This document shows, piece after piece, positions 1 through 18,015 of a stretch of 64,000 bases of DNA. Positions within the stretch are counted from its first letter, which is position 1; the number at the start of each line of letters is the position of its first letter. A program made the translations under genes and the position numbers. Below the pieces are notes generated by a model. The model was not told the origin of the DNA. It saw nothing but the letters and a program-made list of their open reading frames with translations, and made no database searches. Origin of the DNA: Aristolochia californica (taxonomy: Eukaryota > Streptophyta > Magnoliopsida > Piperales > Aristolochiaceae); contig JARWKL010000008.1 of the NCBI GenBank assembly GCA_029961685.1, forward strand, positions 30,505,619 to 30,569,618, given 5' to 3'.

Positions 1-438
1 TCGACCTATGATGCCGAGAATGGGAGGGAATGAAGGAAGGATTGGAGATGTGGAGTCAGACTCGTCGAAGGGATGCCTGAACCTTGGGTTCGTCAAGGAG
101 AACGCCAATCCTGGGTTCCTTAGAGGAGAATCCCGATCCTGGTTAGGTTGAAATCATTCTTGCCTAATTTCATTTCTTGAGCTCCCTTAAAGAAATTCAC
201 GCTAAGGGCCCAATTGAATGCTTTTACAATCCTGCCATTGTGGCTTACATGCTAACGACTTATGAAATAAAATAGACATATACATGCTAACGACTTATGA
301 AATAAAATAGACATATACATGCTAACAACTTATGAAATAAAATAGAAATATAATCCTACAGTACTTGGCTGTTCCACTGAGTCACCAACTCACCCACGTC
401 GCCTCTGGATGACTCGTCCTGCTATGGAGTCCATAACA
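1..438 (-). repeat. G1 3' LTR (partial)
   Basis: Nearly identical to 6671-7073. It ends, in sense orientation, at the TGTTATGGA terminus whose complement is at 430-438; the G-rich polypurine tract lies just to its right. It holds three copies of a 36-bp unit (about 246-353, core CATGCTAACGACTTATGAAA), where the 5' LTR holds two. The remaining ~95 bp of this LTR lie outside the window. Confidence 0.9.
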
Positions 439-495
439 TCACTCCCCCCCTTGGAGAAAGAGCTTGTCCGCAAGCTCGAATGTAGGGTAGACATG

Positions 496-1921
496 CTAGA
501 AAACATTTAGGTCTTCCCAAGTGGCTTTTGTGGCATCTGTGTGTGTCCACTGGACTAGGACTTCTCTGCGCTCATGATTCAGCCGAGCACTTAATATTTT
601 GGCAGGAGTGAGAGAAACTTTACCATCTTCAATTGGTGGTAAGGCGAGAATAGATTGGGGGCGGGACCCTTGAGTGGCTTGAGTAAGGCGACATGAAAGA
701 CATTGTGTAGCTTGAACTCTGGAGGAATTTGTACGCTGGATAATTTTGAAGGGGCCAAAATATTTTGGAGAAAGCTTGTGATGAGTGCCTTCAATAGAAT
801 TTTGACGGTAAGGTTGACGGTGGAGCCATACAAAGTCATCCGGATTGTACTGAATATCGCGGTGTCCCTGATCATAATAGTGCTTCATGCGGGCTTGAGT
901 TGTTCGAAGGTATTGGACAGTGAATTCCAACAATTGACCACGAGTTATAAGAGCTTACTGCATCCACTCTGGTAGTTCCACGAGCATAGGAGAGCAAGCG
1001 AGGAGGATCCCTGCCATATAGTATTTTCAATTTTGTTTCATGTAAAGCCGTGTGGAAAGAAGTGTTGTAGCAGTACTCCGCCCAAGGAAGGCATTCTACC
1101 CACTTTTTAGGATTGTCCCCCAAAAAACACCACAAGTACATCTCAATGGTGCGGTTGACCACCTCAGTCTGGTCGTCTGTTTGAGGGTGATGCGCGGAGG
1201 AGTATTTGAGTTTGGTACCACAAAACTTGAAAATGTCCTTCCAAAAGATACTAGTAAATACCACATCTCGATCACTGACGATGGATTCCGAAATACCGTG
1301 GAGGCAGACAATGTTGGAAAAGAAAACTTGGGCTACAGTGGCTGCTGTATAGGGATGCTCCATAGGAATAAAGTGTCCATATTTAGAAAAATGGTCTACC
1401 ACCACCAAGAGAACAGATTTGCTCGAAGTTTTCGGAAGCCCTTCAATGAAATCCTTAGAAATGTCTGCCCATACCTGTGTGGGAAGATTGAGTGGTTGTA
1501 AGATGCCAGCTGGACTCAAAATGATCAGCTTTGTTCCGTTGACACACTAGACACTCAGCCACATACATTGCAACTGTGGATTTCATCCTTGGCCAATAAA
1601 AATATTCCCGGATGCATGGAAGAGTTTTCTGCACCCCTTTATGCTTGTTGTCATGATAAGATGAGGCAGCCAGTGCTACCAATGGTGAAGTGGATGCTAG
1701 ATATGCTTTTTATAGAGAATAATGTGGTCATGAACGGACCACTGGGCTGACTTAGTGCCTGCAACAATCTGCTTTGACAACTCCTATAAATTTGGTGTGT
1801 GCTGGTGTTCTTCTCTGATGGAATCTAGTAAGATAGAAGTGGGGTGACTGGTGGCAGCCAAATGCAGTTGGTCTTTGGAACGACGGGAGAGGGCATCAAT
1901 AACTTTATTCAGAGTACCCTC
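496..1921 (-). pseudogene. G1 integrase with C-terminal chromodomain (decayed)
   Basis: The zinc-binding N-terminus (about 1682-1500) shows the paired His of YHDNKHKG and the paired Cys of CLVCQRNKAD. The catalytic core (1519-about 930) keeps Asp in DFIEGLP, Asp in SDRDVVF and Glu in TEVVNRT, the D,D,E triad that joins retroelement cDNA to target DNA. The frame then shifts into 933-496, which ends in a chromodomain-like segment, REVLVQWTHTDATKATWED, thought to steer such elements to particular chromatin. The stretch 1921-1690 encodes the RNase H-integrase tether with an NKVIDALSRR motif. Stops and frameshifts break the polyprotein, and N1 separates this part from RNase H. Confidence 0.88.
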
Positions 1922-2360
1922 TGTTGAAAGATAAGCTCAAGGCCACACGACCAAGGAAGGCCCACATATCTAAGATTATTATAAGATGGGCCACATGACC
2001 AAGGAGGGCCCACAAGATGGTCCCAAGCCCATAAGAAGTAGGACCCACAATGATTACCATGAGCTGGCATCCTTATCACATCAGTTGGAAGATCAAGGAC
2101 TCACAAAAGTATCTTTATATTAGGTTCATGACCAAGAAAAGTTTTAGTTTGAGTTATGTTTGTCTTTTATCAATATTGAGTTATTTAATTGTGTTAGGAC
2201 TTATCTTTAAGTGTTAGAGTTTGGGTGTAATTGGGACAAGGGTAGTTTTATTGTAATTGGACTCTACTACCTTCCTCTATTATAAATAGAGGTTCATGTA
2301 CTTTAATTACAACAAGTTATTGATGTCAATGAAGTATTTCACTTTTCCATAAATTCAACA
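1922..2360 (+). repeat. N1 5' LTR
   Basis: 439 bp, TG...CA ends. It contains a TATA-like TATAAATAGAGG near 2281, the likely start region for element RNA. The other LTR of the pair is at 3376-3769. Confidence 0.88.
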
Positions 2361-2831
2361 TGGTATCAGAGGTTCATGTACCCATTGTTTTGCCTCACTT
2401 TTTGAGTTGATATATCAGAAAAATATCTCACTTATCCCTGGTTTGAGGGCTTATCTATGCATCTATGTTATATGGGCTTATTTCTACATCTATGATATTT
2501 GGTTCAAGCTAGGATCACTGCCATTACCTCCCAGCTTGAGGGGGAGAAGTAGAAGAAGTACAAGAAAGAGGTATTTTATTCCATATGTTGTGGATGAGTT
2601 TATGTGACCAAAATATTCAAGAAAGGGGGAGCACAAAAGATGAAGCTGGTGCATCTAAGAAAAAAAAATTATATTAGATTATTTCATGGGTTCTTTTACA
2701 AAGTTTATTATTTGGTTCGTGTTATATGTGTTGGAAGATGGTCGTGTTACATTCAACTGCAGCTATTATGTCTCTTTGGGGACATTATTATAGAAGAAGA
2801 GGTGGCCTCATGTCATCATTTATTTTACCCC

Positions 2832-2998
2832 ATCAAAAAGATGAAAATTATTAGTGGTTGGGAATCCATGACGGAGGAACTTCATCCCCATCAAAAAGAT
2901 CAAAATTATTTGTGGTTGGAAGTCCATGACGGAGGAACTTCATCCCCATTAAAAAGATCAAAATTATTTGTAGTTGAAAGTCCATGACGGAGGAACTT
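2832..2998 (+). repeat. 58-bp tandem repeat, about 2.9 copies, inside N1
   Basis: Units start at 2832, 2890 and 2948 with the common core GTCCATGACGGAGGAACTT. Only N1 among the related elements in the window shows this expansion. A short ORF runs through it on either strand, but that is a by-product of the repeat. Confidence 0.85.
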
Positions 2999-3375
2999 AA
3001 AATTACATCTATGTTATCCTCCCCCCCCCCCCCCCCCTCTCCCCTTGTAATGGCTTTTATGTCTCCTACCACTTGAGAGTCGTTATCTTGTGGAGGGACA
3101 TGGTGGTGGACACTTCAGAGCAATGCCGATAGACACACTACCGATAGAAGTGGAGTGTGTCCTACATCCAGCATTAGGACTGGGGTATGAAGCAATGCTT
3201 ACCGGCTAGGAGTGATTTTCGTAAGGCTTCAATAAAGGATGCAACAGCGTGAGGGGGAGTATTGGAAGATGAAAGCATATTGGAAGATGTGTCATTTTAT
3301 AAAAAACTATTCTATACATCATTTGCAGCAAGTTGGGAGTTCATGTTGTTCTCTCTCCCCCAGCTTGAGGGGGAG

Positions 3376-3769
3376 TGTTGAAAGATAAGCTCAAACCCAC
3401 ATGACCAAGGAAGGCCCACAAGATGAGCCCAAGCTCATAAGAAGTAGGACCCACAATGATTACCATGAGTTGGCATCCTTATCACATCAGTTGGAAGATC
3501 AAGAAGGACTCACAAAAGTATATTTATCTTAGGGTCACGACGAAGAAGAGTTTTAGTTTGAGTTATGTTTGTCTTTGATCAATATTGAGTTATTTAATTG
3601 TGTTAGGACTTATCTGTAAGTGTTAGAGTTTGGGTGTAACTGGGACAAGGGTAGTTTTATTGTAATTGGACTCTACTACCTTCCTCTATTATAAATAGAA
3701 GTTCATGTACTCTAATTAAAACAAGTTATTGATGTCAATGAAGTATTTCACTTTTCCATAAATTCAACA
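3376..3769 (+). repeat. N1 3' LTR
   Basis: 394 bp, matching 1922-2360 apart from a short deletion near its start. It is preceded directly by the polypurine tract. Confidence 0.88.
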
Positions 3770-5159
3770 CCCGCTTTATGTTCCACCTAAAAATCAAAGC
3801 CAATTAACTTGCTAAGCCAGTGTTGTTGGGGAGAAGTTGATATGCGTTGATCAAACAGAAACTTGAAACTTCTGTGCGGACAAGAAAAAAGCATCCCCAT
3901 AAATAAGGTCTCCAATGGCAGACGGCCTTGGCTAGGCCAATGAGTTCCCATTCATAGGCTGGTAGCTTATGATGGTGAAGTGCGAGTTGACGGCTGAAAT
4001 AGGCAATAGGGTGCTGGGATTGTTGAAGCACCGCCCGCCTCCTGAGGCATCACATTCTACCAGATCTTCGAAATCGGCTAACTGCTGTACCGGAGCTGAT
4101 GCTAGAGCTTGCTTGAGTGCTTGGAATGATTTTCAGTGCTATCATTCCAGTGGAAGGCATTGCGGCAGAGAAGATTGGATAGAGGAGCAGCTAGTGGTGC
4201 ATAGTTGTGGATAAACTTCCTATAATATCCGGCTAAGCCCGGAAATCCTCTCAATGCTGAAATATGGCACGGTGGTGGCCAATGCACAATTGCTTCAATC
4301 TTTTCCGGATCCACTGTTTCCCTTGTGGCTGTAATAACTTGACCAAATAGGGCACCTGATTGGTACCAAATGAGCTCTTGGAACTTTTTAATTATAAATG
4401 ATGTGTCCGAAGAAGTTGCAACACCAAACGTAAGTCTCTTAAATAGTGAGTCCAAGACTTGTTGTAGATCAAAATGTCATCGAAGAACACTAACACAAAT
4501 TTTCAGAGATAGTCATTAAATACCTCATTCATTAGTGCCTAAAATGTAGAAGGGACGTTGGAGAGACCGAAAGGCATGACGATGAACTCAAAGTGACCAT
4601 GGTGAGTACGGAATGTGGTCTTCTCTATATGCAGAGGGTACATTCTGACTAGGTGATACCCCGAGCGCAAGTCTAACTTTATGAAAAAAATTTCTCAATG
4701 CAATTCATCTAATAACTCATCCACAACTGGAATAGGGAACTTGTCCTTAATGGTCTTGGCATTTAACTCACGGTAGTCCACACAAAAGCGCCTAGTACTG
4801 TCATTTTTCTTTACCAATAAAACTAACGAGGAGAAAGGGGACTTACTCGGCCGGATGAGACCCTATTCGAGCATGTTTCGGCATTGATGTTCAATTTCAT
4901 CCTTTTGGAGGTGGGGGTACCGATATGGTCTCACAACCACCACTTCGGACCCAGCCTTCAAAGTGATCCAATGGTCACAATGTCTCAATGGCGGTAGAGT
5001 AATAGGTTCCAGAAATAAGTCCTGGAAGTGATCCAACAAGTTGTCTAAATTGGTATCCACCGGGGTGTGTTGCTGAAGTCCATGTAGATGCACTGGCACC
5101 TCAGTTTTACGTCCTTGTAGTGTAACCTTGTTGTTGCCAACTTCAAAGCTCATCATCAA
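3770..5159 (-). pseudogene. G1 reverse transcriptase and RNase H (decayed)
   Basis: Sense reading starts near 5159 with the conserved lead-in VVRPYRYPHLQKDEIEHQ. It continues through [12 protein letters not shown] (about 4780) to the polymerase active-site motif FFDDILIY (about 4490-4467), whose two catalytic Asp are present. The thumb/connection, GLAGYYRKFIHNYAPL, lies at about 4230-4190. RNase H follows at 4031-3804 with SQHPIAYFSRQLALHHHKL. At least three in-frame stops and several frameshifts separate these blocks, so no full-length enzyme can be made. N1 interrupts the reading just past RNase H. Confidence 0.88.
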
Positions 5160-5174
5160 TGCTGAAAAGTCCCA

Positions 5175-5507
5175 CTAGATGGGCCCCAATGTTTGGAGCC
5201 ACTTAACCCCCAAAACCATATCGAATCCTGCCAGTGGGATGATAAAAAACTCCGCAGAAAATTGATGATTATCAATGGTAAACCTGACTTTCTTGCTGAT
5301 CCCATAACTAGGCACCTTTTCCCCATTTGCAACAAAGACTAAAGCTACAGGCCACAGTTGAATTGGAAGCTTTAAAAACTTGGCAGCTGTGAAACTCAAT
5401 AAATTATGAGTGCTGTCGGAGTCGACAAGACTTAAAAGGGGTTGCTTATTGACTAAGGCACAAACTTGCATGGTTGTGGTAGACTGGAGGCCTGTGATCG
5501 TGTGCAA
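5175..5507 (-). pseudogene. G1 retropepsin-like aspartic protease
   Basis: An open 110-codon stretch with the retroelement protease fold: a catalytic loop reading LVDSDSTHN and a distal hydrophobic motif, AGFDMVLGVKWL. In active family members the loop is D-S/T-G, as seen in G2 (LVDSGSTHN); here Gly is replaced by Asp, which should impair dimer-site geometry. The protein would process the Gag-Pol polyprotein inside the virus-like particle. Confidence 0.82.
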
Positions 5508-5559
5508 AGAAATGGCGGGCTCTTTGACCTCGAGCTGTTCTACTTCTCAATTTCTTGCT

Positions 5560-6526
5560 TCTTCCTCATCCTTCACTTCTAACCAGAATAGTTTCTTACA
5601 CTGGTGGCCGAATGTGTACAGCTCATCACAATTATAACATAACCCCTTTGATCTATGTTCTTATATTTCAGACCGGTTTAATTTCCAGATGAACGCTGGA
5701 GTGGATGGAGGAGGTTTAGGTGTTATAGAAGTAGTGGTAGCAGTATTACTTCGCCACGGTGGTGCTATGGTAGGCACTGCCGAGCTGTTCTTTCCCCCTT
5801 GCCAGACAGGTCTTCAAGTTTGAAATTTCTGTTTGGTTTACAAGGCTCTAGCCAAATCCATTGCCCTAGTCAAATCCGTAGGGCCAAGTAGTTTCACTTC
5901 CAAATGGAGGGACTCAGTGAGGCCAGCCGTGAACAAGCTGACATGTTGGTCCACTCGTACCACTTTGCTGGCTGGTGCTAATTTCTCTTGAAATTGCTTT
6001 TGGTACTGGACAACGCTACCCGTCTATCGTAACAGTACTAAATCGCCCAAAGGATTGCTTTGAGCAGGGGACCCAAACCGTATGGTGCACAATTCTTTAA
6101 ATTCATCCCATTCTATGTCAGGATGTTCCAACTCAAGTTGATGGCCCCATAGTTGCACTTCATCGAGCATGTGGAATGCGGCCAAGCCAACTTTGTCTAT
6201 TTCAGCCGTTCGTTGATTGTAAAAAAAAAATTCACAACGATATAAGCAAATTAAAGGGCCGTCAACCCCATTGTAAACCGGAAAATAGAGTTTAGTGTAC
6301 CTTGGGACCACCCCACTGCTTGGACTGAAATTCCGGTGTGTTATGTGCGTCCAATGTGATGTGCACCTTGTCCAATTGAAGGTGCCTTCTCCCCCTCTCT
6401 CGACGTTGGTGTTTTTCCTGAAATCATCTCGTATACTTGAGAGAGTCGGCTATCTAGCAATGCTGCTAGTCGGCCCTCGGTCTCCTCCGGTCTGGTGTAA
6501 ACCATTTTCGTGACTCTTGCCAGCAA
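5560..6526 (-). pseudogene. G1 Gag with CCHC zinc knuckle (decayed)
   Basis: Two open blocks (6526-6341 and 6311-6024) encode the Gag N-terminus and core, with the segment AQSNPLGDLVLLR shared with G2. Further downstream (about 5640-5580) lies a nucleocapsid knuckle, CYNCDELYTFGHQCKKLFW, with Cys, Cys, His and Cys all present. Gag builds the particle that packages element RNA. Frameshifts near 6320 and 6010 break the ORF. Confidence 0.8.
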
Positions 6527-6559
6527 ATCCTCATGGGTCTAAGACTCCCCCATATTTAC

Positions 6560-6576
6560 CTGCTCTGATACCAATG
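6560..6576 (-). other. G1 primer-binding site (initiator Met tRNA)
   Basis: In sense orientation the bases just inside the 5' LTR read TTGGTATCAGAGCAGG, complementary to the 3' end of plant initiator Met-tRNA, the usual minus-strand primer. Confidence 0.9.
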
Positions 6577-7073
6577 TGTTGTGGTCCCTGACCACAGACC
6601 TCGTCACTCGAAAAAGGGAAGGATCGCCAAGGGGAATAGGGGATGAACCAGGCCTAACAGACTTACCTGGTTGACCTATGTTGCCAAGAATAGGAGGGAA
6701 TGAAGGAAGGATTGGAGATGTGGAGTCAGACTCATCGAAGGGATGCCTGAACCTTGGGTTCATCAAGGAGAACGCCAATCTTGGGTTCCTTAGAGGAGAA
6801 CGATGATCCTGGTTAGGTTGAAATCATTCTTGCCTCATTTCATTTTGTGAGCTCCCTTAAAGCAATTCACGCTAAGGGCCCAATTGAATGTTTTTACAAT
6901 CCTACCATTGTGGCTTACATGCTAACGACTTATGAAATAAAATAGACATATACATGCTAACGACTTATGAAATAAAATAGACATATAATCCTACGGTACT
7001 TGGTTGTTCCACTGAATCACCAACTCCTCCACATCACCTCTGGATGACTCGTCCTACTATGGATTCCATAACA
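6577..7073 (-). repeat. G1 5' LTR
   Basis: 497 bp bounded by TGTTGTGG and CCATAACA (TG...CA in both orientations). It carries two copies of the 36-bp unit present three times in the partner LTR at 1-438. The bases after 7073 are satellite sequence. Confidence 0.92.
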
Positions 7074-9486
7074 AAATACATCTCTAGGAACCATAAGTGC
7101 CTCATGTTTCCTTGAACCATTTTCCAAAATTTAAATTCTTACCAAGAAAATTTTGTGGTTAGACAATGTTTAATGAATAAAAATTACTTTCTACAACTAT
7201 AAGGCCTTGTTAATGCATTTTTCTGGAAACGTTGGAAAAATATTTTTAGTGAAAATACCTCTCTAGGGAAAATTAGTGCCTCATGTTTCTTGGAAACACT
7301 TTTCAAGCAGAAAATTCTTACCAAGAAATTTTTCTGGAGAGGCAATTTTTCAAAATCAAATTACTTTTTACAACTATAAGGTATTGTTAGAGGCATTTTT
7401 TAGGAAACATTTGAAAAGTATTTCTTATAAAAATACATCACATGTGACAATTTGTGCCTCATGTTTCCCTTAAACAATTTATAATAAAAAAATCATTCTA
7501 GGAATATTTTTATGGTAAGGCATTTTTTTGAACAAATAAGGCGTTGGTGGTGCATTTGTTAAGGAAAAATTGCAAAAGTATTTGTAGTAAAAATACGTCT
7601 CCAAAGACCATTAGTTCCTCCTGATTCCTGGAAACATTTTTGTTGATGAAAATTCTTACAAGGAAAATTTTGTGGTGAAGCAATATGTGCTAAAACCAAT
7701 TACTTTCTACAAATATAACACCTTGATAGTGCCCTTTTTTAGGAAACATTGAAAAAAGTATTTCTAATAAAAATAAATCATAGGAGACTATTTGTGCCTT
7801 GTGTTTCTTAAAAACACTTTACAAGCGAAAAAATCAATCTAGGAAAATTTTATTGTAATGCGTGTTTTTTTAAAAAAATACTTTCTAAAACTATAAGGCC
7901 TTGCTAGTGCATTTGTTAAGGAAACATTGCAAAAAGTATTTTTAGTAAAAATACTTCTCCAGATTCCATTAGTGCCTCATGTTTCCTGGAAACACTTTTT
8001 AAGCTACCAGGAAAATTTTGTAGTTCTACAATTTTTGCTAAAATAAATTACTTTATACAACTATAATGTCTTGTCATGTAAGAAATGTATTTCTAGTAAA
8101 ATACATCTACATGGACCATTAATGCCTTATGTTTGGTGGAAACACTTTTCAATTTGAAAACTCTTATCGAAAAAATTTTGTGGTGAGGCAATTTTTGCTG
8201 ATACATATTACTTTATTCAACTATAACAACTTGTTAGTACATTTTTTAAGGAAATTTTGGAAAAGTATTTCTAGTAAAAATGCATCTCTTGGGATCATTA
8301 ATGCCTCATGTTTCCTAGAAACACTTTTCTTGCTGAAAATTCTTTGCAAGAAATTTTTGTGGTAAGGCAATTTTAGCTTAAATAAATTACTTTCTATAAC
8401 TATAACGCCATGTTAGTGCCTTTTTTCAGAAAACATTGGAAATGTATTTCAAGTAAAAATACATCTCCAGGGACCATTAGTACCTCATGTTTCCTTGAAC
8501 CACTTTCCAAAATGTAAATTCTTACCAAGAAAATTTTGTGGTCTGGCAATGTTTAATGAAGAAACATTACTTTCTACAACTATAAGGCCTTGTTAATGCA
8601 TTTTTCTGGAAACGTTGTAAAGTATTTTTAGTATAAATACGTCTCTAGAGAACATTAGTGGCTCACATTTCCTGTAAACACTTTTCAAGCTGAAAATTCT
8701 TAGGAGGAAATTTTTTTTGGAAAGCAATTTTTGGTATAACAAATTACTTGCTACTACTATTTTGCCTTGTATTTGCCTTTTAACAAGAAACTTTGGAAAA
8801 AAATATTTCTAGTAAAAATACGTCTGCAAGGACCATTAGTGCCTCATGTTTCTTGGAAATACTATTTAAGCAGAAAATTCTTACTAGGAAAATTTTCTGG
8901 AGCCAATTTTTTCAGAATCAAATTACAATTTACAACTATAAGGTATTGTTAGAGGCATTTTTCAGGAAACATTGGAAAATTACTTCTAATAAAAATACGT
9001 CACATGTGACAATATGTGCCTCATGTTTCCTGTAAATAATGTATAAGAAAAAGATCATTCTAGGAATATTTTTATGGTAAGGAATTTTTTAAAACAAATT
9101 AATTTCTTCAACTATAAGGCCTTGGTGGTGCATTTGTTAAGGAAATGTTGCAAAGTATATGTAGAAAAAATACGTCTCCAGAGTCCATTAGTGCCTCATG
9201 ATTCCTAGAAACATTTTTCTTCCTAAAAATTCTTACAATGAAAATTTTGAGGTAAGGCAATATTTGCTGAAACCTATTACTTTTTACAACTATAACACCT
9301 TGTTACTACCTTTTTTCAGGAAACATTGGAAAATTATTTCTAATAAAAATACATCACATGAGACTATTTTTTCCTCGTGTTTCTTGGAAACACTTTACTA
9401 GCAAAAAAATTATTCTAGGAAAATTTTATGGTAAGATATTTTTTTTTAAAATATTGTTTTCTAAAACTTTAAGGACCATTAGTGCC
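7074..9486. repeat. ~178-bp satellite array, left block (about 14 monomers)
   Basis: The motif TTAGTGCCTCATGTTTCCTGG or a close variant recurs at about 7089, 7268, 7451, 7608, 7788, 7965, 8114, 8292, 8470, 8650, 8830, 9008, 9181 and 9360, mostly 173-183 bp apart, with two short monomers (about 149 and 157 bp). Each monomer also carries TTACTTTCTACAACTATAAGGCCTTG. The block is AT-rich and non-coding; short ORFs through it are chance. Monomer length is like many plant centromeric or heterochromatic satellites. It is broken at 9473-9486 by the pararetroviral insertion and continues at 16823. Confidence 0.93.
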
Positions 9487-9496
9487 GGTTTTGTAT

Positions 9497-9736
9497 ATGT
9501 CAAAGAAGTCAAAGCTTACCTTTGATTCTTTCTGTTTAGGTATACATACTCCCAAACAGTTACGACTCATACCGGTCACATCCCAAGTAACATTTGTAAG
9601 GAACAAATGTACTAATGTATCAAAGACCCCAACTGGTAGGTCAGAAGGAACTCATCGGTCTTTCTTACGACACCGTTTTGAAAACTGGACAGACAAATGT
9701 TTGTCCAATAATAGGCTATCCACATGGATGGCATGA
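9497..9736 (+). CDS. Viral ORF at the left edge, 79 aa, unknown
   Basis: Starts at an ATG ten bases inside the insertion boundary and overlaps the next ORF in another frame. It is rich in Lys, Arg and Thr. The region before 9615 may be the true start of the 136-aa ORF, joined through a frameshift near 9610, or the ORF may be fortuitous. No family recognised. Confidence 0.35.
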   Translation: MSKKSKLTFDSFCLGIHTPKQLRLIPVTSQVTFVRNKCTNVSKTPTGRSEGTHRSFLRHRFENWTDKCLSNNRLSTWMA

Positions 9737-10025
9737 CAAGAATAATCCAATATTAAATAATATAATGGATTTAGTTGGTGATATACATCACAGCTTCTTT
9801 CTAAAAAGATATTGGGAAAAATACACCCCAGAAAGCGTTGCTTTCCTATGCTTAGGAATAGAAAGTGACGTTAATGAACAAGTACAGAAACTCAAGAGAA
9901 GAATTAATGCCCATCTTGAGGTACTTAAAATAGGAAATACTGACGAAACAGTACATTTCCTTACAGATCTACAAAGCTATGTAGATGAAGAAATAAATCA
10001 TTCTAGGATCTTAGCACCAATCTGA
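9615..10025 (+). CDS. Viral hypothetical protein, 136 aa
   Basis: First well-formed ORF of the viral block, with stops in frame just upstream (9597) and an ATG at 9615. The product is mixed alpha/beta in look, with an aromatic stretch, HHSFFLKRYWEKYTP, and a charged helical C-terminus. It sits 15 nt before the 85-aa ORF. Position, upstream of the movement gene and after the leader, is where several caulimovirid genera keep small lineage-specific ORFs. I do not recognise the family. Confidence 0.6.
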   Translation: MYQRPQLVGQKELIGLSYDTVLKTGQTNVCPIIGYPHGWHDKNNPILNNIMDLVGDIHHSFFLKRYWEKYTPESVAFLCLGIESDVNEQVQKLKRRINAHLEVLKIGNTDETVHFLTDLQSYVDEEINHSRILAPI

Positions 10026-10040
10026 GAAGCGAAAATAAAG

Positions 10041-10298
10041 ATGGTTAATAACAAACCATCAAAAAAGGAGTTACAAGAAGTAATTTGCAAAATATCTTCT
10101 GTAAAAACTCATCATGGAACAGATAGAGATCGTCTTATACGAGACATCTGTGCCTTAACACAAAATGAGGAATTGAGAGAACTTGTTATACAACACATCA
10201 CTCCTTTCATCACTTTGTATCAATTGGAACGATTGCTTGAACTCCTGTTCCAAAAATTAGAAGAGACCTCAACTCATCTAAAATTCCTAAATGTCTGA
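10041..10298 (+). CDS. Viral hypothetical protein, 85 aa
   Basis: A small, highly helical, Leu/Glu/Lys-rich product (for example LYQLERLLELLFQKLEE near the C-terminus, a likely amphipathic or coiled-coil helix). It begins 15 nt after the preceding stop and overlaps the movement-protein start by 8 nt (10291-10298), the compact spacing expected of a polycistronic pararetroviral RNA. Function unknown; a virion-associated or accessory role is only a guess. Confidence 0.6.
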   Translation: MVNNKPSKKELQEVICKISSVKTHHGTDRDRLIRDICALTQNEELRELVIQHITPFITLYQLERLLELLFQKLEETSTHLKFLNV

Positions 10299-11247
10299 AC
10301 AAATAGGAATCGAATGTACTTCTCTCCAAAACAGTGTTCATATACATCATGAAACACAGGGAGAATACGATGAACATCCTAATCTGATGCAGGATGGACA
10401 AAAGTGGACAATAAGTATCCCTCGGATAACTGAAGTCTACAATAAAGATTGGATTGAATTCCAAAAGAAATCCTTCGTCTTCCAGAAGGAACTATCTATA
10501 GAAATACAGGATACTGACTCAGGTACTTTCTGCTACAGATTGTTAAGTGAATCTGACTTAGCCAAGCTAAAGAGATTCAAATATGTCCATTATGGACTAG
10601 TTCGTATAGGATTAGACCCCTTAATACGAATCAATCAGAATTTACCCTTCATAGCAGCTATAGTAGATAACTCTGTGAAGAATAATTTTGAAAAGGCCCT
10701 ACTCGGAGGAGTTAGAGCAAATTTAGGATTAGGCCCTGTATCCTTTACAACATGGCCCAATCTCCAAATAGATTTAGAAGACAAGCACATCCAAGATACC
10801 TTGTCCCTAAAAATCTATACAGACAACTGGTCGAAAAATGGAATTCAACCAGGAAGAAGAGTTATGCGCATACTTGTATGCATAGTAGCCCAAGGAATCA
10901 ACACTGGAAAGGTTCCAGTTAAAGATTCAAAGAAACTCACAGAATTAGCCAAAAACATTGGTTATTCGAAAAACTTGACCATAGAAGAACTCGACCCAAG
11001 AAAGTTAACATGGCCAACAGAATGGGTAGTTCAACCTTTGGCACCCAGACACCTTCCTCTCTCTCGAAAAACCATAAAAGAGATAGAAGGAAAACTAGTG
11101 ATCACAAACACTAGACCCAACTTTTCCATCGAACAGGACAGGCCCTCTACCTCGATAAGTAGAACCTCAACTAGTTCCCGTTTCGAAGGAATAGGAAATC
11201 CAAGGCCCAATGCTTATGTTCCTCTTCACATAGATGATGGCACATAA
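10291..11247 (+). CDS. Caulimovirid movement protein (30K superfamily)
   Basis: An intact 318-codon ORF. The central part (about residues 95-215) has the beta-rich 30K core: HYGLVRIGLDPLIRI, then the Asp in AAIVDNSV, a Gly-rich GGVRANLGLGPVSF and EDKHIQDTLSLKIYT. 30K proteins form tubules or gate plasmodesmata so that virions or nucleic acid pass between cells. Length is close to that of caulimovirid movement proteins. The C-terminal 60 residues are Ser/Thr/Arg/Pro-rich, the variable tail usual in this family. It overlaps the 85-aa ORF by 8 nt and the next ORF by 14 nt. No stop or frameshift interrupts it. Confidence 0.8.
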   Translation: MSEQIGIECTSLQNSVHIHHETQGEYDEHPNLMQDGQKWTISIPRITEVYNKDWIEFQKKSFVFQKELSIEIQDTDSGTFCYRLLSESDLAKLKRFKYVHYGLVRIGLDPLIRINQNLPFIAAIVDNSVKNNFEKALLGGVRANLGLGPVSFTTWPNLQIDLEDKHIQDTLSLKIYTDNWSKNGIQPGRRVMRILVCIVAQGINTGKVPVKDSKKLTELAKNIGYSKNLTIEELDPRKLTWPTEWVVQPLAPRHLPLSRKTIKEIEGKLVITNTRPNFSIEQDRPSTSISRTSTSSRFEGIGNPRPNAYVPLHIDDGT

Positions 11248-11653
11248 TCCATACAAAGCCTTAGGTCCGCCGATAGGAAATAGTGACATAGTCACCAACT
11301 CCATTCAAACCTTAGAGTCTTATGGTAAGACCCTTAATAGGTTAGAAAAAACTGTTGAAAACCTCCAACAAAAAATAGATTTCCTCTATGATGAACATAA
11401 ACATAGAGAAATAATAAAGTGTCAAAACATCCTAGAAAATATTCTAGAAAAGATTGACCATGGAAATAGTCCTGTTTTCTTCAAAGAGTTAACAGAACTT
11501 AAACAAAGTTTAGATAATCTAAACAAAGATAAAATGCAAGAACTTTTGACAGAAGTCTTAGCATTAAAAGAACATCTAGGTTCAAAAGAACGTCTAGGTT
11601 CTCCAAGTCCATCAAGGTATAAAACACCTTTTACACCTTGGACACCAGAATGA
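11234..11653 (+). CDS. Virion-associated protein-like coiled-coil protein, 139 aa
   Basis: Starts at the ATG pair at 11234 inside the movement-protein end and terminates in an ATGA overlap with the next ORF. Residues ~30-115 are predicted coiled coil (for example LNRLEKTVENLQQKIDFLYD). The C-terminus is short, basic and Pro/Ser-rich (SPSPSRYKTPFTPWTPE). Size, N-terminal coiled coil and basic Pro-rich tail match the caulimovirid virion-associated protein. That protein forms tetramers, sits in the coat through its tail, and links virions to movement and to vector transmission. Assignment rests on architecture and gene order rather than on a diagnostic motif. Confidence 0.62.
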   Translation: MMAHNPYKALGPPIGNSDIVTNSIQTLESYGKTLNRLEKTVENLQQKIDFLYDEHKHREIIKCQNILENILEKIDHGNSPVFFKELTELKQSLDNLNKDKMQELLTEVLALKEHLGSKERLGSPSPSRYKTPFTPWTPE

Positions 11654-11865
11654 TCTATAAAAGGAAACTTTTAGATCGTTTAAAATTAAAAAGAGAAAGC
11701 CTTAACCTCGCTTTGTTCCAAAGAAATACTCTTCAGCCAGAAGATAATACAATCCCAGCAATGGTATGGTATTACTATTTTTGGGAAAGATATTCTGATC
11801 GCATCTACAACCTTAGATGCAAGATCAAGAAAATCAAAAGGAAGCTAAATCTTTTAGCTTTGTAA
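11650..11865 (+). CDS. Viral small basic protein, 71 aa, twin copy 1
   Basis: ATG at 11650 overlaps the preceding stop as ATGA. The product is basic, ending in a Lys/Arg run (CKIKKIKRKLNLLAL). It aligns without gaps to the next 71-aa ORF, about 29 of 71 residues identical by my count: shared MI, LLD, R-TL-P, W-R, LR--IKK--RKL--LAL. That points to a tandem gene duplication. Function unknown; a nucleic-acid- or virion-binding role is suggested only by charge and size. Confidence 0.65.
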   Translation: MIYKRKLLDRLKLKRESLNLALFQRNTLQPEDNTIPAMVWYYYFWERYSDRIYNLRCKIKKIKRKLNLLAL

Positions 11866-11866
11866 A

Positions 11867-12082
11867 ATGATCAGTAGAGCAAGACTACTAGATCAACTTC
11901 GTCTGGTACGGTCAATGCAAGCCCAAAATTGGCAAGCCAGAGAAACTCTCACACCAGTAAATGACACCGATATAGCCTATCAGGCATATCTGAATGAATG
12001 GTGGAGATTAACCCATAGAGAAATTCTACTACGGTATCTAATTAAAAAGTTTCAACGGAAGCTTCAAGAATTAGCTCTATGA
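11867..12082 (+). CDS. Viral small basic protein, 71 aa, twin copy 2
   Basis: Begins one base after the stop of copy 1 and ends in an ATGA overlap with the coat-protein start (12079-12082). Same length as copy 1 with the same conserved N-terminal LLD, central TLTP and C-terminal IKKFQRKLQELAL, but a Gln/Trp-rich middle. Both copies being open argues that they were maintained as separate genes in the virus and had diverged before insertion. Confidence 0.65.
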   Translation: MISRARLLDQLRLVRSMQAQNWQARETLTPVNDTDIAYQAYLNEWWRLTHREILLRYLIKKFQRKLQELAL

Positions 12083-13818
12083 CAGAGTTTTTCTATTTAA
12101 TGGATATGGAAACTCCATTACCATTAGGCCTTCCTGACATCACCGGATGGCTTAAAAACCTAGTGTACTTTGCAACACCTTGCATAGCACCCAGAAAAAA
12201 AGATCCAGCACCACCTGCTTATAGGATCGCTTCAAAAGCATCATCCTCCACCGATGATGAAGTTTACGCAGAATATAATACCTTCGATCGTCAACCGATT
12301 TATTATGTTCAAGAAGAAAAACCTTCTTCGAGTAAACAACAAGAGCAACACGACAGTGAACCAGAAGCCTGGGAATCTGATGAAGTTGCAGAAGAAAATA
12401 CCAAGAAAACAGACTACTCTGCTAAAGACAAAAAGGCAGATGATCTTGGTAAAAGGTTTCGAATGCTTCGTGGTAGTGACCATTTTGAAGCAGAAACTTC
12501 AAGGGTACGAGATACCCACATGGAAGATAGCTTTCAAGATAACTTCCGAAACCGTACTGCGGTTCATCCGCAAGAACGAGAAAGTTTCTCCCACTCCAAA
12601 ATATCCCTGGGAGGACAAAGGTATTCGACAAAATACACAAATGTCGATCCTTCAAATGCTACTAAGGGACACCGAACCATAGATAGCATAAACCCTTTTG
12701 GATTTTACCTCAACTTGGATTGCCCCAAGGATGGAGAAAAAGTCCTTAAAGATTGGGAAAGAAGCATGAGCAATGCTGCAAATATGCATGAATCTTGGAA
12801 CCAAGAATCAGCATTTAATTTCTTTACCCATGCTTTACAGGGTAATGTAGCTCTTTGGTGGGACAACCTTCCCGAAGACCAAAAATGAGCTAATACTTCA
12901 ATATCGATAGCCAATATCTTGAAAGGATTAGTGGCTAAGATATCAAAGGAATTTCTAGGAATACATCCAACCCTAGAAGCCTACAATGAGAATACTAAAC
13001 AAAGAAAACGTTTAGAAACTCTTCAGAAATTAAACAAGTTACAAATCTATAACATTTGTTTTTATGAGAAGTATTACTGCGAGTTTGCAAGTTACTTCTA
13101 TAAACTGCAAAAAGAAGACCAGAAACCTTATCTGTCTATCTTTTATGCAAAATTTCCAGAACCATTTGCACATGTAGCAGAAAAAGACTACATTACAAAG
13201 TATTGGCAAAACAATCCAGAACTTGGTACTTTAACCATGTATATTTTCCTAAACATTGATACGTTAGGAAGAAGACATAGATTTGTACAAGACATGTTGG
13301 CAAATCTTTGTGAAGCCCAAAAACTACAAAAGAAAAGTAGTAAGGCAAATAAACAAACATTATGTTGTTCAAATCAGAACAAAAACGTAGGAGCTTATGG
13401 TTGCAAAACCACCTCCCATAAGCAACGAAAATATCCTAAGAAAAAATTTAGGATACAAAAAAGTTCTACAACAAGGTATACTCCTAAAAAGAGATACTTT
13501 CGAAAGAGAACAAATTCTGGCCCAACTACATCCAGTAAAAGGTCAAATGCATACTGCCCAAAGGGGAAAACCCCAAGCAAATGCAAATGCTGGATATGCC
13601 AGAAAGAAGGACATTTCGCCAAAGATTGTCCAAATGATAAACAACAACGGCGGTACAGTACATATATGTTACTAGCCGAAGCAAATGGATTGGAAATCAT
13701 CCATTACGCTGACATCCAGTCAGAAGATGAAGTGTATGAACTTCATCTCAAAACTGAGTCCTCCTCCTCGGAAAACTCAGAAAATATGAGTGACTCTTCA
13801 GGCACAACTTTTGCCTAA
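12079..13818 (+). pseudogene. Caulimovirid coat protein, interrupted by one in-frame stop
   Basis: A 579-codon frame broken once, by TGA at 12886-12888; both sides are in the same phase. Features in order: an acidic N-terminus (EPEAWESDEVAEE); a capsid core with FNFFTHALQGNVALWWDNL just before the stop; a Lys/Arg-rich region (about 13390-13540); a zinc knuckle, CKCWICQKEGHFAKDC (about 13582-13630); and a Ser/Glu-rich acidic tail. Acidic ends with a basic region and C-x2-C-x4-H-x4-C knuckle are the hallmark of caulimovirid coat proteins, which package viral DNA and bind its RNA. It overlaps the preceding ORF by ATGA. The single stop is consistent with decay after integration. Confidence 0.83.
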
Positions 13819-13992
13819 TATTCGGTTATGCTTTTGCTTACCCGTTATACAAATGGCAGCTAGCGTGGTGATTTATCTCCCACTATTGTCATAAAATACT
13901 TTCTCTACTCCTGCATCATGCATTATAGAGAATTTTATAATTAACCTGATACTCTTACCACTCGAGATTTTCTTGTGTTATAGACAGGTAAA
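13819..13992 (+). other. Short spacer where the polymerase gene would be expected
   Basis: 174 bp between the coat-protein stop and the transactivator-like start. It has no ORF and no protease or reverse-transcriptase motif. It includes AT-rich TATA-like strings (near 13937) and a pyrimidine-rich stretch ending in ATAGACAG (about 13960-13987) that resembles a splice acceptor. It could hold a promoter for the next gene, as the 19S promoter does in caulimoviruses, but that is inference. Confidence 0.6.
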
Positions 13993-15467
13993 ATGGATCC
14001 CCTCAGCAGCACCCTGACGGACCTAGCAGCAGCAATTGCCGCACTCACGGTATTGCTCTCAACCCTACAGTCACTATTCGACAGTCTTTTAGTTCTCTCA
14101 GAACGAGAAGACATTTATGAGAATTGTGCCCGTTATGGGTTAAGTGGAGAACTCTTACAACTCAAGGTTAAAGAATTAACCGAAGAGTTAAAAGAACTCA
14201 CCCTACGGCATGAAATGCCAAGCTCCTCTGGAACTTCTACCGGATCTCCATTGCGAGAAAAGGAAGCCACAACGTCAGCTAATCAGCAGACGGATGACTT
14301 TAGTGTTTTGATAAACACAGGTCGACCCGGGATTTCTACCGGTCATGCCAGGCATGAGAAGGAAATCACAACCCAATCTTCTCTGAAGATAGGGGAATCA
14401 GGGATTTCTACCTGCCAGTCAAGAGCTGGAAAGGAAACCTTAACGATTTCGTTGAAATCGGAATCAGGGACTTCTACCTGTCAGTCTAGAACTGAAAAGG
14501 AAGTCTTAACGGATCCATCCCTGATGGAAACGGACTTGTCTAAGAATGAGAAATCATTCAAGACAAAATTGGTTACCCCGTCTGAGTTTACAAGGTTGAA
14601 AAGCCTAAATAAACCAGATAAAACTAGTTTTAATGAGTTTGAGTTTTTAAAGAAATTTAAACCTTTAAAACTTTCGGACATTATGTCTGAGGAACCCTCA
14701 CTCGCCCTCAACAGGTGGACAGCGTTCGTTCAAAGATCGAATCCGATCATACTGTTCAATTCCAGAGATGGAATGAACAAATTGGACAAGGGATGAACAC
14801 TCCCTTCTTCACCATTGAGCCCAGCAATAGTTGGAATCAAGTGAAGCTGAGTCATGAAATAGACTCAAAATATGCATCCATGCTTTATGCATATGGATTC
14901 ATAAAACAATTGGTATTGCCCTCCACCGACTTATCAGTATTGGAGAAAATGCCAAAGGAAATTATGGAGGCTTGCAAAAGCTTTATCTCCATAACGAAGA
15001 GTAAAGGAATTCGACTGCATTTCGTTTCCTGTATTGCTGAAATTGTTACTGACACCAAAATGTTTCCAAGCATTTCCGTCGTGACTATTGAAGGCATCAA
15101 AGAAGGTGACGCCAACATGGAATATGATCCCAGACATGTTCCAAAAGCCAAGCCTTGCCCAGAAGCAGTCTGGCCAACCAGACGTATCCACGGGCTAAAA
15201 CACCTGATACAGCTCATGAAGCAGCTGATTCAGAAAAAGAGAAGCTTCGTCTACAAGACCTCCGTCCCATTGACGATCATCTCTAAAAGCTATAAAGAGA
15301 CTCCGGCCTCCGTCCAGACCAGTCTTGAAGTTACGCTGAAGAAAATCCTTGGAGGAAATATCCCCTTCAGCAAAACAACAAAGGAAAGCTTCTGCCAGAT
15401 GGCACAGAAGACTTTTTCTAAGGAGCACACATGTAAACTGTGCACAAAAAGGCAGCTGTCCGAATGA
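13993..15467 (+). pseudogene. Inclusion-body/translational transactivator-like gene, frameshifted
   Basis: Two overlapping open frames: 13993-14796 (267 codons) and about 14715-15467. The first starts with a Leu-rich helical region (LKVKELTEELKELTLRHE), then four Ser/Gly/Thr repeats built around GISTCQSR/GTSTCQSR. The second carries a compact conserved-looking block, KSKGIRLHFVSCIAEIVTD, and ends in a basic tail. Position after the coat gene and before the main promoter is that of the caulimovirid transactivator, which lets ribosomes reinitiate on the polycistronic RNA and forms the virus factory. I did not find the viroplasmin WY motif, so the call rests on position and general look. The change of frame between about 14715 and 14796 breaks it. 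Confidence 0.55.
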
Positions 15468-15592
15468 GCAGTCAGCAGCCACGTCAACCGACTAGTCAGC
15501 AGCCACGACAGCAGACTAGGCCCACGACGAAAACAAATTCAGCAAAGGCGGCTCAAAAGTCCGCCATGGCGGCTACAAAAAGTCATCAATGA
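15464..15592 (+). CDS. Possible 42-aa basic Gln/Ala/Lys-rich viral ORF
   Basis: The ATG overlaps the preceding stop as ATGA, as at 11650 and 12079. The product is low-complexity (SSQQPRQPTSQQPRQQ near its start). A 14-bp direct repeat, AGTCAGCAGCCACG (15470 and 15494), creates the repeated SQQPR. It lies directly upstream of the promoter, so it could equally be upstream promoter DNA, or an extension of the previous protein in another frame. Confidence 0.35.
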   Translation: MSSQQPRQPTSQQPRQQTRPTTKTNSAKAAQKSAMAATKSHQ

Positions 15593-15806
15593 CGGCTACA
15601 CAAGCTAAAAAAAAGATTCCTGCACGTCATCATCATGACATCACAAGCAGAAAAGACATTTCTACCCCTGCTTTCGGCGCCGAGAGGTAATAATGCAAGG
15701 GCAAAAGAGACATGCCAAAAAGACAAAAGTTACCCTTTGTCTTTAAACGCACACCTTACAATCAAGGGTAAAGGTGGAAAAGCTGAAAAATCTTCAGCTA
15801 TAAATA
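15590..15806 (+). promoter_or_regulatory. Putative pregenomic-RNA promoter
   Basis: A clear TATAAATA box at 15799-15806 lies downstream of the last viral coding region. Upstream are two as-1-like cores in opposite orientation, TGACG (15590) and ACGTCA (15624), the sites that bind TGA-type bZIP factors in the caulimovirus 35S promoter. Here they are further from the TATA box than in that promoter. Transcription would start near 15830 and enter the leader. Confidence 0.6.
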
Positions 15807-16822
15807 CGATGCTCCTCCAGAGGAAAGATCATCGAAACATGGAGCAACTCACCAATAGACGAGCATTAGTTCCGAAGAAGAAGGCGATTTCCGGCGATCT
15901 TTCTCCGGCAAGTTCCTCAAGCACGGTATGTGCTTAAACAGCCGTAATGGCTGAGTAGAAAAGAGGGAACCGACCGGTGCCACGGTCGGTAACTTCGGGA
16001 GTTATGTAGATAAGTTGTTTTTTCTTTTCCTTTTTTTAAGGGTATGTATTTTATGTTTTTGTTTTAGACAATGTTTTTATATTTTCGCATGTTTGTAATA
16101 TTGTGATTCGTACAGTAACTGTTATTACTATTCATATTCCGCATCTATGTCTTGATCTCCACAGTGTTTGTTTTTACTGTTCCATAGTTACTGTTCAAAA
16201 GTACTGTTCATTTTTACTATTCATGGTTACTATTCATGTTTACTGTTCACTCGTCAAAAAGAAATAGTATCGAAATAGTGCCAAATAGGACAGACGCTAG
16301 AGACTTGGAATTATTCGGCTACGTTCCGAGGTAGAAAACGAAACGGAGCTGTGCTCTACCCTGCTGAAGCAGCCATGGAGCCGCAACGGTTAATAGGAAT
16401 GGCTAAGGGCCCTCTGGAGACCGTGAGGACCGCATCGACGGAATTGCCCACTTGGTGGTAAGCCGGCAGGAATAGGGTCAAACCCCGAAGAAGTTCTAGG
16501 TAGCAGCAGAAGTCATGTTGGGCCTACTAGATAGCTATGACATAGACACAAACGAGTACATAACGGTGACATGTGGTAGGAAGCAGGAAAGTAGCCTAAT
16601 GGTAAACTGATAGGACGGACGAAGTGTGACTATAGGAATAGTATTGTGTGAGTCATTGTTGTTTTCCGCTACCCGTAGATGTCATCCCCTACCTGTACTC
16701 ACGAGACTGGCAGGTAGCAGTCCCTAGGATTCTTGTTCCGCTGCCCTGTATCCCTAGGATGTCTTCCGCTGTGTGTACAAGTCTATTAGAGACTCTGTGT
16801 CGATATCATAGCAATAGTGCAG
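15807..16822 (+). other. Viral leader/intergenic region
   Basis: About 1 kb with no credible long ORF. It is T-rich at 16010-16120, carries the 13-bp repeat at 16175-16249, then a more GC-balanced, probably structured part (16290-16620). Caulimovirid leaders are long, with small ORFs and hairpins that drive ribosome shunting, and this fits. I could not see the expected TGGTATCAGAGC primer site here or at the left end of the block. If 9487 and 16822 were neighbours in a circular genome, this leader would run straight into the 9497/9615 ORFs. Confidence 0.55.
16126..16249 (+). repeat. 13-bp tandem repeat TACTRTTCA in the viral leader
   Basis: TACTATTCA/TACTGTTCA/TACTGTTCC occurs at 16126, 16175, 16189, 16202, 16215, 16228 and 16241. 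The last five are spaced exactly 13 bp, so this is a true tandem array with A/G alternation at one position, not chance AT-richness. Confidence 0.85.
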
Positions 16823-18015
16823 GGACCATTAGTGCCTCAAGTTTCCTGGAAACACTTTTCTTGCTGAAAATTATTACAAGGAACATTTTGAGGTAAGGTA
16901 ATATTTGCTCAAACCAATTACTTTCTACAACAATAAGGACTTGTTAGTGCGTTTTTTTCAATAAACATTGGAAATGAATTTCTAGTAAAAATACATCTCT
17001 AGGGACCAATAGTGCCTCATGTTTCCTTAAACCAATTTTCAAGATGTAAATTGTTACTAGGAAAATTGTGGTAAGGAATTTTTTGTTGAAACAAATTACT
17101 TTCTACAACTAAAAGGCCTTGTTAAGACATTTTTTTAAGGAAATGTGAGAAAAGTATTTCTTGTAAAAATACATGTCTAGGCGCCATTAGTAGCTAATGT
17201 TTCCAGGAAACAATTTTCAAGTTGAAAATGCTTACCAGGAAAAACTTGTCGTAAGGAAATTTTTGCTTAAACAAATTAATTTCTACTACTATAAGGCCTT
17301 GTTAGTACCTTTTTAAAGGAAATGTAGGGAAAGTATTTCTTGTAAAAGTACGTCTCAAGGGACCATTCGTGCCTCATTTTTGTTGCAAACACTTTTCTTG
17401 CTTAAAATTCTATAAGGAAAATTTTGTGATGTGGCCTTTTTTTAAAACAAATTACTTTCTACAACAATAAGGCATTGTTAGTGTATTTTTTAGGAAATGT
17501 TGGAAAATTATTTCTACAAAAAATACGTCTCCAAGGAAAATTAGTGCCTCGTGTTTCCTGGAAACAATTTTCTAGTTGAAAATTCGTACTTGGAAAATTA
17601 TATTATGTGACAATTTTATCTGAAACAACTTACCTCCTACAACTATAAGGCCTTATTAGTGGATTTTTTCAAGAAAATAGTGGAAAACTATTTGTAGTAA
17701 AAATACATCTCCAGGGATCATATGTTTACTGAAAACACTTTTTAAGCTAAAAATTATTTGCAGAAATTTTTTGTGATAATAAAATTTTTTTCTTAAACAT
17801 ATTACATTATACAACTATTAGTCTTGGTTAGTGCATTTTTTTCAGGAAACGTTGGAAAAGTATTTCTAGTAAATATATGTCTTTGGGGATCATTATTGCC
17901 TCATGTTTCATGGAAACACTTATCAAGAGGAAAATTCTTAGTTGTAAAATTTTGTGATGCCTTTTTTACAACTATAATTCTTTCTTAGAGCCTTTTTTTA
18001 TGAAACGTTGGAAAT
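16823..18015. repeat. ~178-bp satellite array, right block (about 7 monomers)
   Basis: Resumes after the viral insertion with AGGGACCATTAGTGCCTC. Monomers begin at about 16825, 17005, 17185, 17362, 17542, 17715 and 17890. They are more diverged than the left block, and the last is shortened, ending near 18015. No coding content. Confidence 0.9.

What the first reader, a model, noticed from the sequence alone, without database searches (positions are those of the whole stretch)
9487..16822. Caulimovirid genome with the polymerase gene cleanly absent
Seen: movement, virion-associated, coat and transactivator-like genes, a promoter and a leader in normal order, but coat and transactivator genes are only 174 bp apart, with no protease/RT/RNase H motif between them or elsewhere in the block. 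The flanking genes have their own stop and start, so the loss is gene-precise rather than ragged. Known: caulimovirids encode pol as one ORF there, and divided (two-component) genomes have been proposed for some endogenous caulimovirids. Inference: this could be the structural/movement component of a divided pararetrovirus, or a satellite-like deletion mutant helped in trans.
Basis: partly seen in the sequence, partly recalled or inferred. Interest (0 to 1): 0.88.

Follow-up and report, generated by a model that had tools for sequence, protein, structure and literature searches.

The report
Polymerase-less half of divided plant virus
A fossil plant virus in this genome has no polymerase gene but has its movement gene, and the same genome holds many close relatives with the opposite pattern, which suggests that the virus once kept its genome on two separate, complementary DNA circles.

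Summary
The observation largely holds. 9487-16822 is an endogenous caulimovirid without protease/RT/RNase H, inserted in a ~179-bp plant satellite. It is not a one-off: the pol-less junction is in 40 of 40 scored genome matches. The loss is not quite gene-precise: the 174-bp gap holds a probable decayed internal pol remnant and about the last 50 nt of pol.

The partner exists. Of 69 pol-bearing copies examined, 55 have an MP-less 5' gene set including a Cauli_VI ORF, 6 have the MP-side genes, 8 are unresolved. Sampled by MP alone, 23 of 40 copies are pol-less, 3 have pol, 14 are unresolved. Both forms share leader sequence and CP (A-B mean 95.6%), and pol-less copies lie near pol copies far above control (13 of 40 against 0.58).

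Best reading: a divided caulimovirus-type virus, like the bipartite florendoviruses but in another lineage. Minority copies with both MP and pol, and a third form lacking both, mean that helper-dependent defective forms are not excluded. The downstream "transactivator" is named by position only.

The parts
7073..9486 (.). left flank: ~179-bp satellite array
   Evidence: repeat and tandem-repeat output
9487..9615 (+). leader end downstream of the primer site, shared by both virus forms (A-B identity 92-98%, mean 96.0)
9615..10025 (+). ORF 136 aa, MP-side module, function unknown
10041..10298 (+). ORF 85 aa, MP-side module, function unknown
10291..11247 (+). movement protein, 318 aa
   Evidence: PF01107 E 1.2e-10; 40 full-length genome copies at 96-100%, window included
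11234..11653 (+). ORF 139 aa, coiled-coil type; place of a virion-associated protein (by position only)
11638..11865 (+). ~71-75 aa ORF, orthologue of the 71-aa ORF of the pol-bearing form
11867..12082 (+). 71 aa ORF, paralogue of the preceding one
12079..13818 (+). coat protein, interrupted by one in-frame stop at 12886; zinc knuckle near the C-terminus; last residues altered relative to the pol-bearing form
13803..13941 (+). filler in place of pol; most likely a decayed internal pol remnant (right boundary approximate)
   Evidence: aligns to internal pol of the divergent copy L025, 0 of 3000 shuffles as good; among 17 close pol copies shuffles reached the score in 2 to 189 of 200
13942..13991 (+). 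about the last 50 nt of the pol gene, retained
13993..15467 (+). downstream ORF in transactivator position, in two frames here (13993-14796, 14715-15467)
   Evidence: no recognised relatives
15468..16822 (+). promoter region (TATAAA at 15799, by consensus only) and leader with many short uORFs
   Evidence: fold z -1.18, not clearly more stable than shuffles
16823..18014 (.). right flank: satellite array

Best explanation
The block is an integrated copy of component B of a divided caulimovirus-type pararetrovirus. B carried MP, CP and the downstream ORF; component A carried CP, protease-RT-RNase H, the downstream ORF and a separate Cauli_VI ORF, but no MP. Both circles had closely similar leader and CP. 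B's RNA could therefore be reverse transcribed and packaged with A's pol, while A moved between cells with B's MP. The pol-less form arose by deletion in an older virus that had both MP and pol, leaving pol scraps. Both forms, and A/B exchange products, were then integrated many times. Shown: the two gene sets, shared leader and CP, recurrence and co-location. Inferred: function in trans, mutual dependence, and the order of events.
For: Recurrence: 40 of 40 scored matches cross the pol-less junction (39 over all 401 bases, one over 396) at 94-100% on many contigs (1136 candidates, the rest not scored). Partner: PF02160 gives 150 of 150 scored hits over the cut-off, 508 candidates. All 30 protease loci read have CP next to the protease, and 23 of 30 show the downstream ORF on the far side. 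Complementarity: of 69 pol copies 55 have the MP-less 5' type, 6 MP-side genes, 3 rearranged, 5 without viral sequence there; of 40 MP copies, 23 pol-less, 3 pol+, 14 unresolved. Fisher test of 5' module against pol on resolved copies (9:5 and 6:55), p = 5e-5; duplicated loci are not removed. Leader: the 129-nt leader end is 92-98% identical A-B in 17 sequences, one place entered twice. An exact tRNA-Met primer site lies 26-27 nt before it in 10 of the 17 (same double entry). Same virus: CP A-B 95.6%, A-A 95.2%. Co-location: 13 of 40 pol-less copies within 20 kb of one of 150 listed pol copies; control mean 0.58, maximum 4 in 1000. Unit sizes: one same-strand pair each at 7468 bp (MP form) and 5820 bp (form lacking both), and 5 of 12 same-strand pol pairs at 7629-7711 bp, three of them copies of one locus. 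In CP (29 pol+, 7 pol-less copies) changes shared by at least 3 copies fall 25:29:67 on codon positions against 96:81:78 for singletons, so the gene was under selection before integration.
Against: Copies with MP-side genes and pol in one unit exist: four close to the window (L112/L126, L128, L133, L134) and two divergent (L025, L142). Five of 20 pol-less copies carry the MP-less 5' module, so they lack both MP and pol; a strict two-part genome does not need them. Longer leader comparisons of three MP-less pol copies with the window are lower, 80-91%. All exact primer sites stand before the MP-less module; before the MP-side module the best of five sequences has 2 mismatches, two have 3 and two (window and its duplicate) none. 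Part of the copy number is host duplication: the window and a C329 copy share flanks at 99.8%, and two further sets of 2 and 3 copies share structures. MP codon-position data are weak (shared 4:4:11, p 0.08; singletons 34:17:38, p 0.015). No evidence of transcription or particles is available.
Confidence: 0.6

Rival explanations
1. Defective forms helped by an autonomous virus: the MP+pol form (about 9.3 kb by addition of parts) was the complete virus, and the pol-less, MP-less and double-minus forms were its helper-dependent deletion or recombination products, as in satellite-like or defective-interfering genomes.
For: Copies with MP-side genes and pol exist; a third form lacking both exists, with one 5820-bp same-strand pair; the pol filler matches the divergent MP+pol copy best.
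Against: MP+pol is the rarest arrangement seen (6 of 69 pol copies, 3 of 40 MP copies). The MP-less form is not a simple deletion: it has two ORFs, one with Cauli_VI at 5.2e-14, that the MP form lacks.
Confidence: 0.3
2. One defective insertion multiplied only by host processes (segmental and satellite duplication), without replication of the pol-less genome.
For: The window copy sits in a satellite and has a duplicate with 99.8% identical flanks; other copies share rearranged structures.
Against: Among the window and 10 other pol-less copies whose ends were fetched I count 7 different end structures. The pol-less 3' half occurs with two different 5' modules. Pairs at unit-length spacing occur.
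Confidence: 0.06
3. MP+pol copies are only A-B recombinants, and the divided state is the older one.
For: The four close MP+pol copies have MP-side sequence 91-99% identical to the window.
Against: Two divergent copies (mostly 74-92%) already have MP-side genes and pol in one line, which suggests that the joined state is old.
Confidence: 0.2

Closest known systems
Bipartite florendoviruses (VvinBV, VvinDV, OsatBV, SbicV), PMC4241990
   Same: Two complementary endogenous components; one lacks RT, the other lacks part of the structural/movement genes; closely similar intergenic regions; compound insertions; for VvinBV a possible undivided parent (PMC10377300)
   Different: Florendoviruses encode a polyprotein and have no recognisable TAV homologue; there component A loses CP. 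Here genes are separate, CP and the downstream ORF are on both parts, and MP and pol are divided. Pol is of the Caulimovirus type; I did not compare it directly with florendovirus pol.
Complementary non-autonomous grass pararetroviruses ePVCVL/ePVCVL2 and eRTBVL2, PMC5491270
   Same: Non-autonomous virus species kept by shared noncoding regulatory sequences and recombination between partners
   Different: Other lineages and other gene division; I did not test concerted evolution of the leader beyond pairwise identity
Genus Caulimovirus and Rudbeckia flower distortion virus
   Same: Pol of one MP-less copy is 45-46% identical to Rudbeckia flower distortion virus, dahlia mosaic virus D10, Atractylodes mild mottle virus, figwort mosaic virus and carnation etched ring virus
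   Different: Those are single-circle viruses with pol between CP and the transactivator (recalled); here Cauli_VI is a separate ORF seen on the MP-less form only

Membership tests
Caulimoviridae | 30K-type movement protein, zinc-knuckle CP, protease-RT-RNase H | tested here: met
   MP and CP in the window; PF02160, RVT_1 and RNase H in the partner form; pol absent from the window itself
Caulimoviridae | tRNA-Met primer site behind a long leader | tested here: met
   absent from the window copy; exact in 10 of 17 related leader ends, one place entered twice, all before the MP-less module
genus Caulimovirus | pol sequence groups with the genus | tested here: inconclusive
   best named hits are Caulimovirus members and Rudbeckia flower distortion virus at 45-46%; no tree was built
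genus Caulimovirus | transactivator/viroplasmin with Cauli_VI domain after pol | tested here: not met
   downstream ORF has no Pfam match or relative; Cauli_VI lies in a separate 5' ORF of the partner form
bipartite florendovirus | belongs to Florendovirus by RT | tested here: inconclusive
   no florendovirus among the names shown for the 120 best pol hits (many rows unnamed), no direct comparison
divided (two-component) pararetrovirus, as a way of working | complementary gene sets with shared intergenic region, many copies at different places, compound insertions | tested here: met
   with the minority MP+pol copies and the third form as exceptions
divided (two-component) pararetrovirus, as a way of working | each part depends on the other for replication or movement | not testable with these tools
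   needs function; minority MP+pol copies leave helper dependence open

The most novel reading that the evidence does not exclude
A caulimovirus-type virus with separate genes split its genome in a way that my searches did not find described: pol and a Cauli_VI protein on one circle, MP and its neighbours on the other, with CP, the downstream ORF and the leader on both. Both circles are near 7.5-7.7 kb where a joined one would be ~9.3 kb, so a packaging limit may have driven the split, with a third 5.8-kb circle as a by-product or member.
Probability: 0.5. Interest if true: 0.85.

Novelty: new variant of a known kind. Interest (0 to 1): 0.77.

Why it matters
Divided genomes are common in plant RNA viruses but were called unique among viral retroelements when reported for florendoviruses (PMC4241990, passages read). 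A further case in a lineage with separate genes and a different division of labour would show that pararetroviruses split repeatedly. It also gives a genome with all arrangements (MP only, pol only, both, neither) in one place, where the order of events, the role of genome size and the link between shared control regions and partnership can be tested by counting and dating copies.

Tried and rejected
Leads that failed. A primer site at 16801-16812 with three mismatches was dropped: the real site is in the 82-130 bp missing from this copy. Structure prediction of a downstream ORF piece was useless (mean pLDDT 35), so no fold search was made. CP piece, MP and downstream ORF piece found no relatives in viral contigs, and an RT-motif pattern found none. 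MP and the downstream ORF found none among 5.8 billion proteins. No Rfam or tRNA match in the window. The leader is not clearly more structured than shuffles (z -1.18, 3 of 20 shuffles as stable). PF01107 returned another, better-scoring MP family clustered on C489 and C478 in its 150 scored rows, so MP was sampled by DNA instead. One apparent MP+pol copy (L066/L084/L014) proved rearranged.

Not in print: searches listed divided or complementary pararetroviruses only in florendovirus and grass papers and reviews or tools built on them, as far as listings and the five papers read in passages show; the library lacks most subscription journals.
Full report
What is there. The window lies at G000:C500:30505619-30569618 of a 659.6-Mb genome in 521 contigs; satellite, retrotransposons and virus type say plant. 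Positions 9487-16822 interrupt a ~179-bp satellite array. CP holds one in-frame stop, and the ORF after it is in two frames, so this copy is a fossil. The downstream ORF is in the transactivator position, but neither its pieces nor longer open frames from two other copies (447 aa in L002, 394 aa in L006) matched any Pfam family, and the L002 frame found no relative in the protein collection. I keep the name only as a position.

The pol-less junction recurs. A 401-bp query over the CP/downstream-ORF junction matched 1136 candidate places; the tool scored 40, and all 40 cross the junction at 94-100% identity (39 over 401 bases, one over 396). The candidate number is not a copy number, since pol-bearing copies share parts of the query.

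Pol-bearing relatives are in the same genome. PF02160 gave 508 candidates, 150 scored and all 150 over the cut-off. In the 30 loci held, CP lies directly before the protease, at 88-100% identity to the window per tile in 29 and 81-82% in L025; 23 of 30 show the downstream ORF after it. Comparing the two forms, the pol-less one departs at ~13803, has a filler of about 130-140 bp, and regains about the last 50 nt of pol before the next ORF. The filler aligns to internal pol of the divergent copy L025 better than any of 3000 shuffles. Against 17 close pol copies the shuffles reached the observed score in 2 to 189 of 200, so the match is to the older lineage and is the weaker part of this reading.

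The pol-bearing copies mostly lack MP. Five fetched upstream all show leader end, then the MP-less 5' module, then CP, with no MP match. In that module an 83-108-aa ORF is open in four of the five, a 102-aa ORF in two (Cauli_VI at 5.2e-14 in L059), and a 71-aa ORF in all five. Three more are of this type from end pieces, then 15 of 20, 19 of 20 and 13 of 20. With L025 this makes 69 of the 150 scored: 55 MP-less type; 6 with MP-side genes (L112/L126, L128, L133, L134, and the divergent L025 and L142); 3 rearranged (L066, L074, L075); 5 without viral sequence at that place (L076, L078, L127, L140, L146). L126 shows the MP-side module from leader end to the ORF before CP, 93-97% identical to the window, and L112 shows it leading into CP. 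Duplicated loci are included in these counts.

The reverse sample. MP DNA gave 513 candidates and 40 full-length copies, plus one 55-base piece that I left out. At the CP end 23 are pol-less (the window and three others by coordinates, seven re-read as L173-L179, twelve new), 3 are pol+ (the loci of L126, L133, L134), and 14 could not be resolved because no CP end lay at the expected place. This sample was chosen by closeness to the window's MP, not by pol status. Among 20 pol-less copies read at the MP position, 9 have MP, 5 have the MP-less module (a form lacking both), 3 are rearranged and 3 have no viral sequence.

The forms belong to one virus. CP of 36 rows (29 pol+, 7 pol-less with the window; L003, L025 and L030 left out as short) gives A-B identity 92.1-97.9%, mean 95.6, A-A 95.2, pol-less among themselves 97.6. 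The tree needs two changes of the label, and none of 500 shuffles needs as few, so pol-less CPs are clustered but lie inside the pol+ diversity; near-copies help such clustering. The 129-nt leader end is 92-98% identical between forms (12 before the MP-less module, 5 before the MP-side module; L044 and L063 are the same place). Longer leader stretches before three MP-less pol copies match the window at 80-91%. In two places the leader of a pol-less copy runs through the primer-site region into an MP-less pol copy. The exact primer site stands 26-27 nt before the leader end in 10 of 17 sequences, all before the MP-less module; L046 has 1 mismatch, L126 2, L047 and L051 3, and the window, L039 and L095 have none there.

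Replication before integration. Unit-length spacings occur: among six same-strand pol-less pairs within 20 kb one is 7468 bp (second copy of the MP form) and one 5820 bp (form lacking both); the others are 4744, 9148, 11470 and 13840. Among 12 same-strand pol pairs 3-11 kb apart five are 7629-7711 bp, three of them copies of one locus; the 5' type of the second copies was not read. CP changes shared by three or more copies favour third codon positions (25:29:67, p 2e-6), while singletons are flat (96:81:78, p 0.33); the set is mostly pol+ copies. For MP the same test is weak. Thirteen of 40 pol-less copies lie within 20 kb of one of 150 listed pol copies against a control mean of 0.58, maximum 4 in 1000; three of the 13 share one duplicated structure. 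Some multiplication is by the host: the window and a C329 copy have the same ends and flanks at 99.8%.

Placement. Pol of one MP-less copy has its best named matches in Rudbeckia flower distortion virus and members of genus Caulimovirus at 45-46%, with plant-genome matches in Lactuca, Centaurea, Tanacetum and Artemisia among others (120 of 734 rows shown, many unnamed). No tree was made. The host species is not known to me.

Comparison with print. Bipartite florendoviruses (PMC4241990, passages; review PMC10377300, passages) and complementary non-autonomous grass viruses (PMC5491270, abstract and passages) are the same kind of system by similar criteria: missing domains, shared intergenic region, many copies, compound insertions. 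The present case differs in lineage, in having separate ORFs, and in which genes are divided. PMC5902531 (passages) says that TAV homologues occur in Caulimovirus and some related genera and that none is recognisable in Florendovirus; the ORF here could not be tied to them by sequence. PMC9719215 was read in passages. Other papers were seen in listings only.

Conclusion. That the pol-less genome was a replicating, repeatedly integrated form using pol supplied in trans is well supported (about 0.9, my estimate). That it and the MP-less form depended on each other as a divided genome is the best reading (0.6); defective forms beside a rarer complete virus remain the main rival (0.3).

Noticed in passing
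window 1-7073: LTR-like pair (3-438 and 6673-7073, 86% identical) that suggests a retrotransposon next to the satellite array
   Followed up: no
window 7073-9486 and 16822-18014: The satellite breakpoints are out of phase, by about 68 bp by my reading, and share a 14-base stretch at both viral junctions; a microhomology join or a duplication, not settled
   Followed up: partly
G000:C489 about 10-13 Mb and C478 about 8-11 Mb: A second, higher-scoring family of movement-protein genes in dense clusters, many with open frames of 340-360 aa; another caulimovirid or host MP-like genes
   Followed up: no
L073, L077, L119, L144: Four pol copies share an inverted leader piece joined inside the MP-less 5' module, at about the same point in three of them, removing its first part; a further recurrent variant or a duplicated locus
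   Followed up: no
L085/L025 and L142: Divergent (67-92%) relatives with MP-side genes and pol in one line, candidates for an older undivided virus
   Followed up: partly
window 11638-12082: Two adjacent ~71-aa ORFs are paralogues; the MP-less form has only the first
   Followed up: yes
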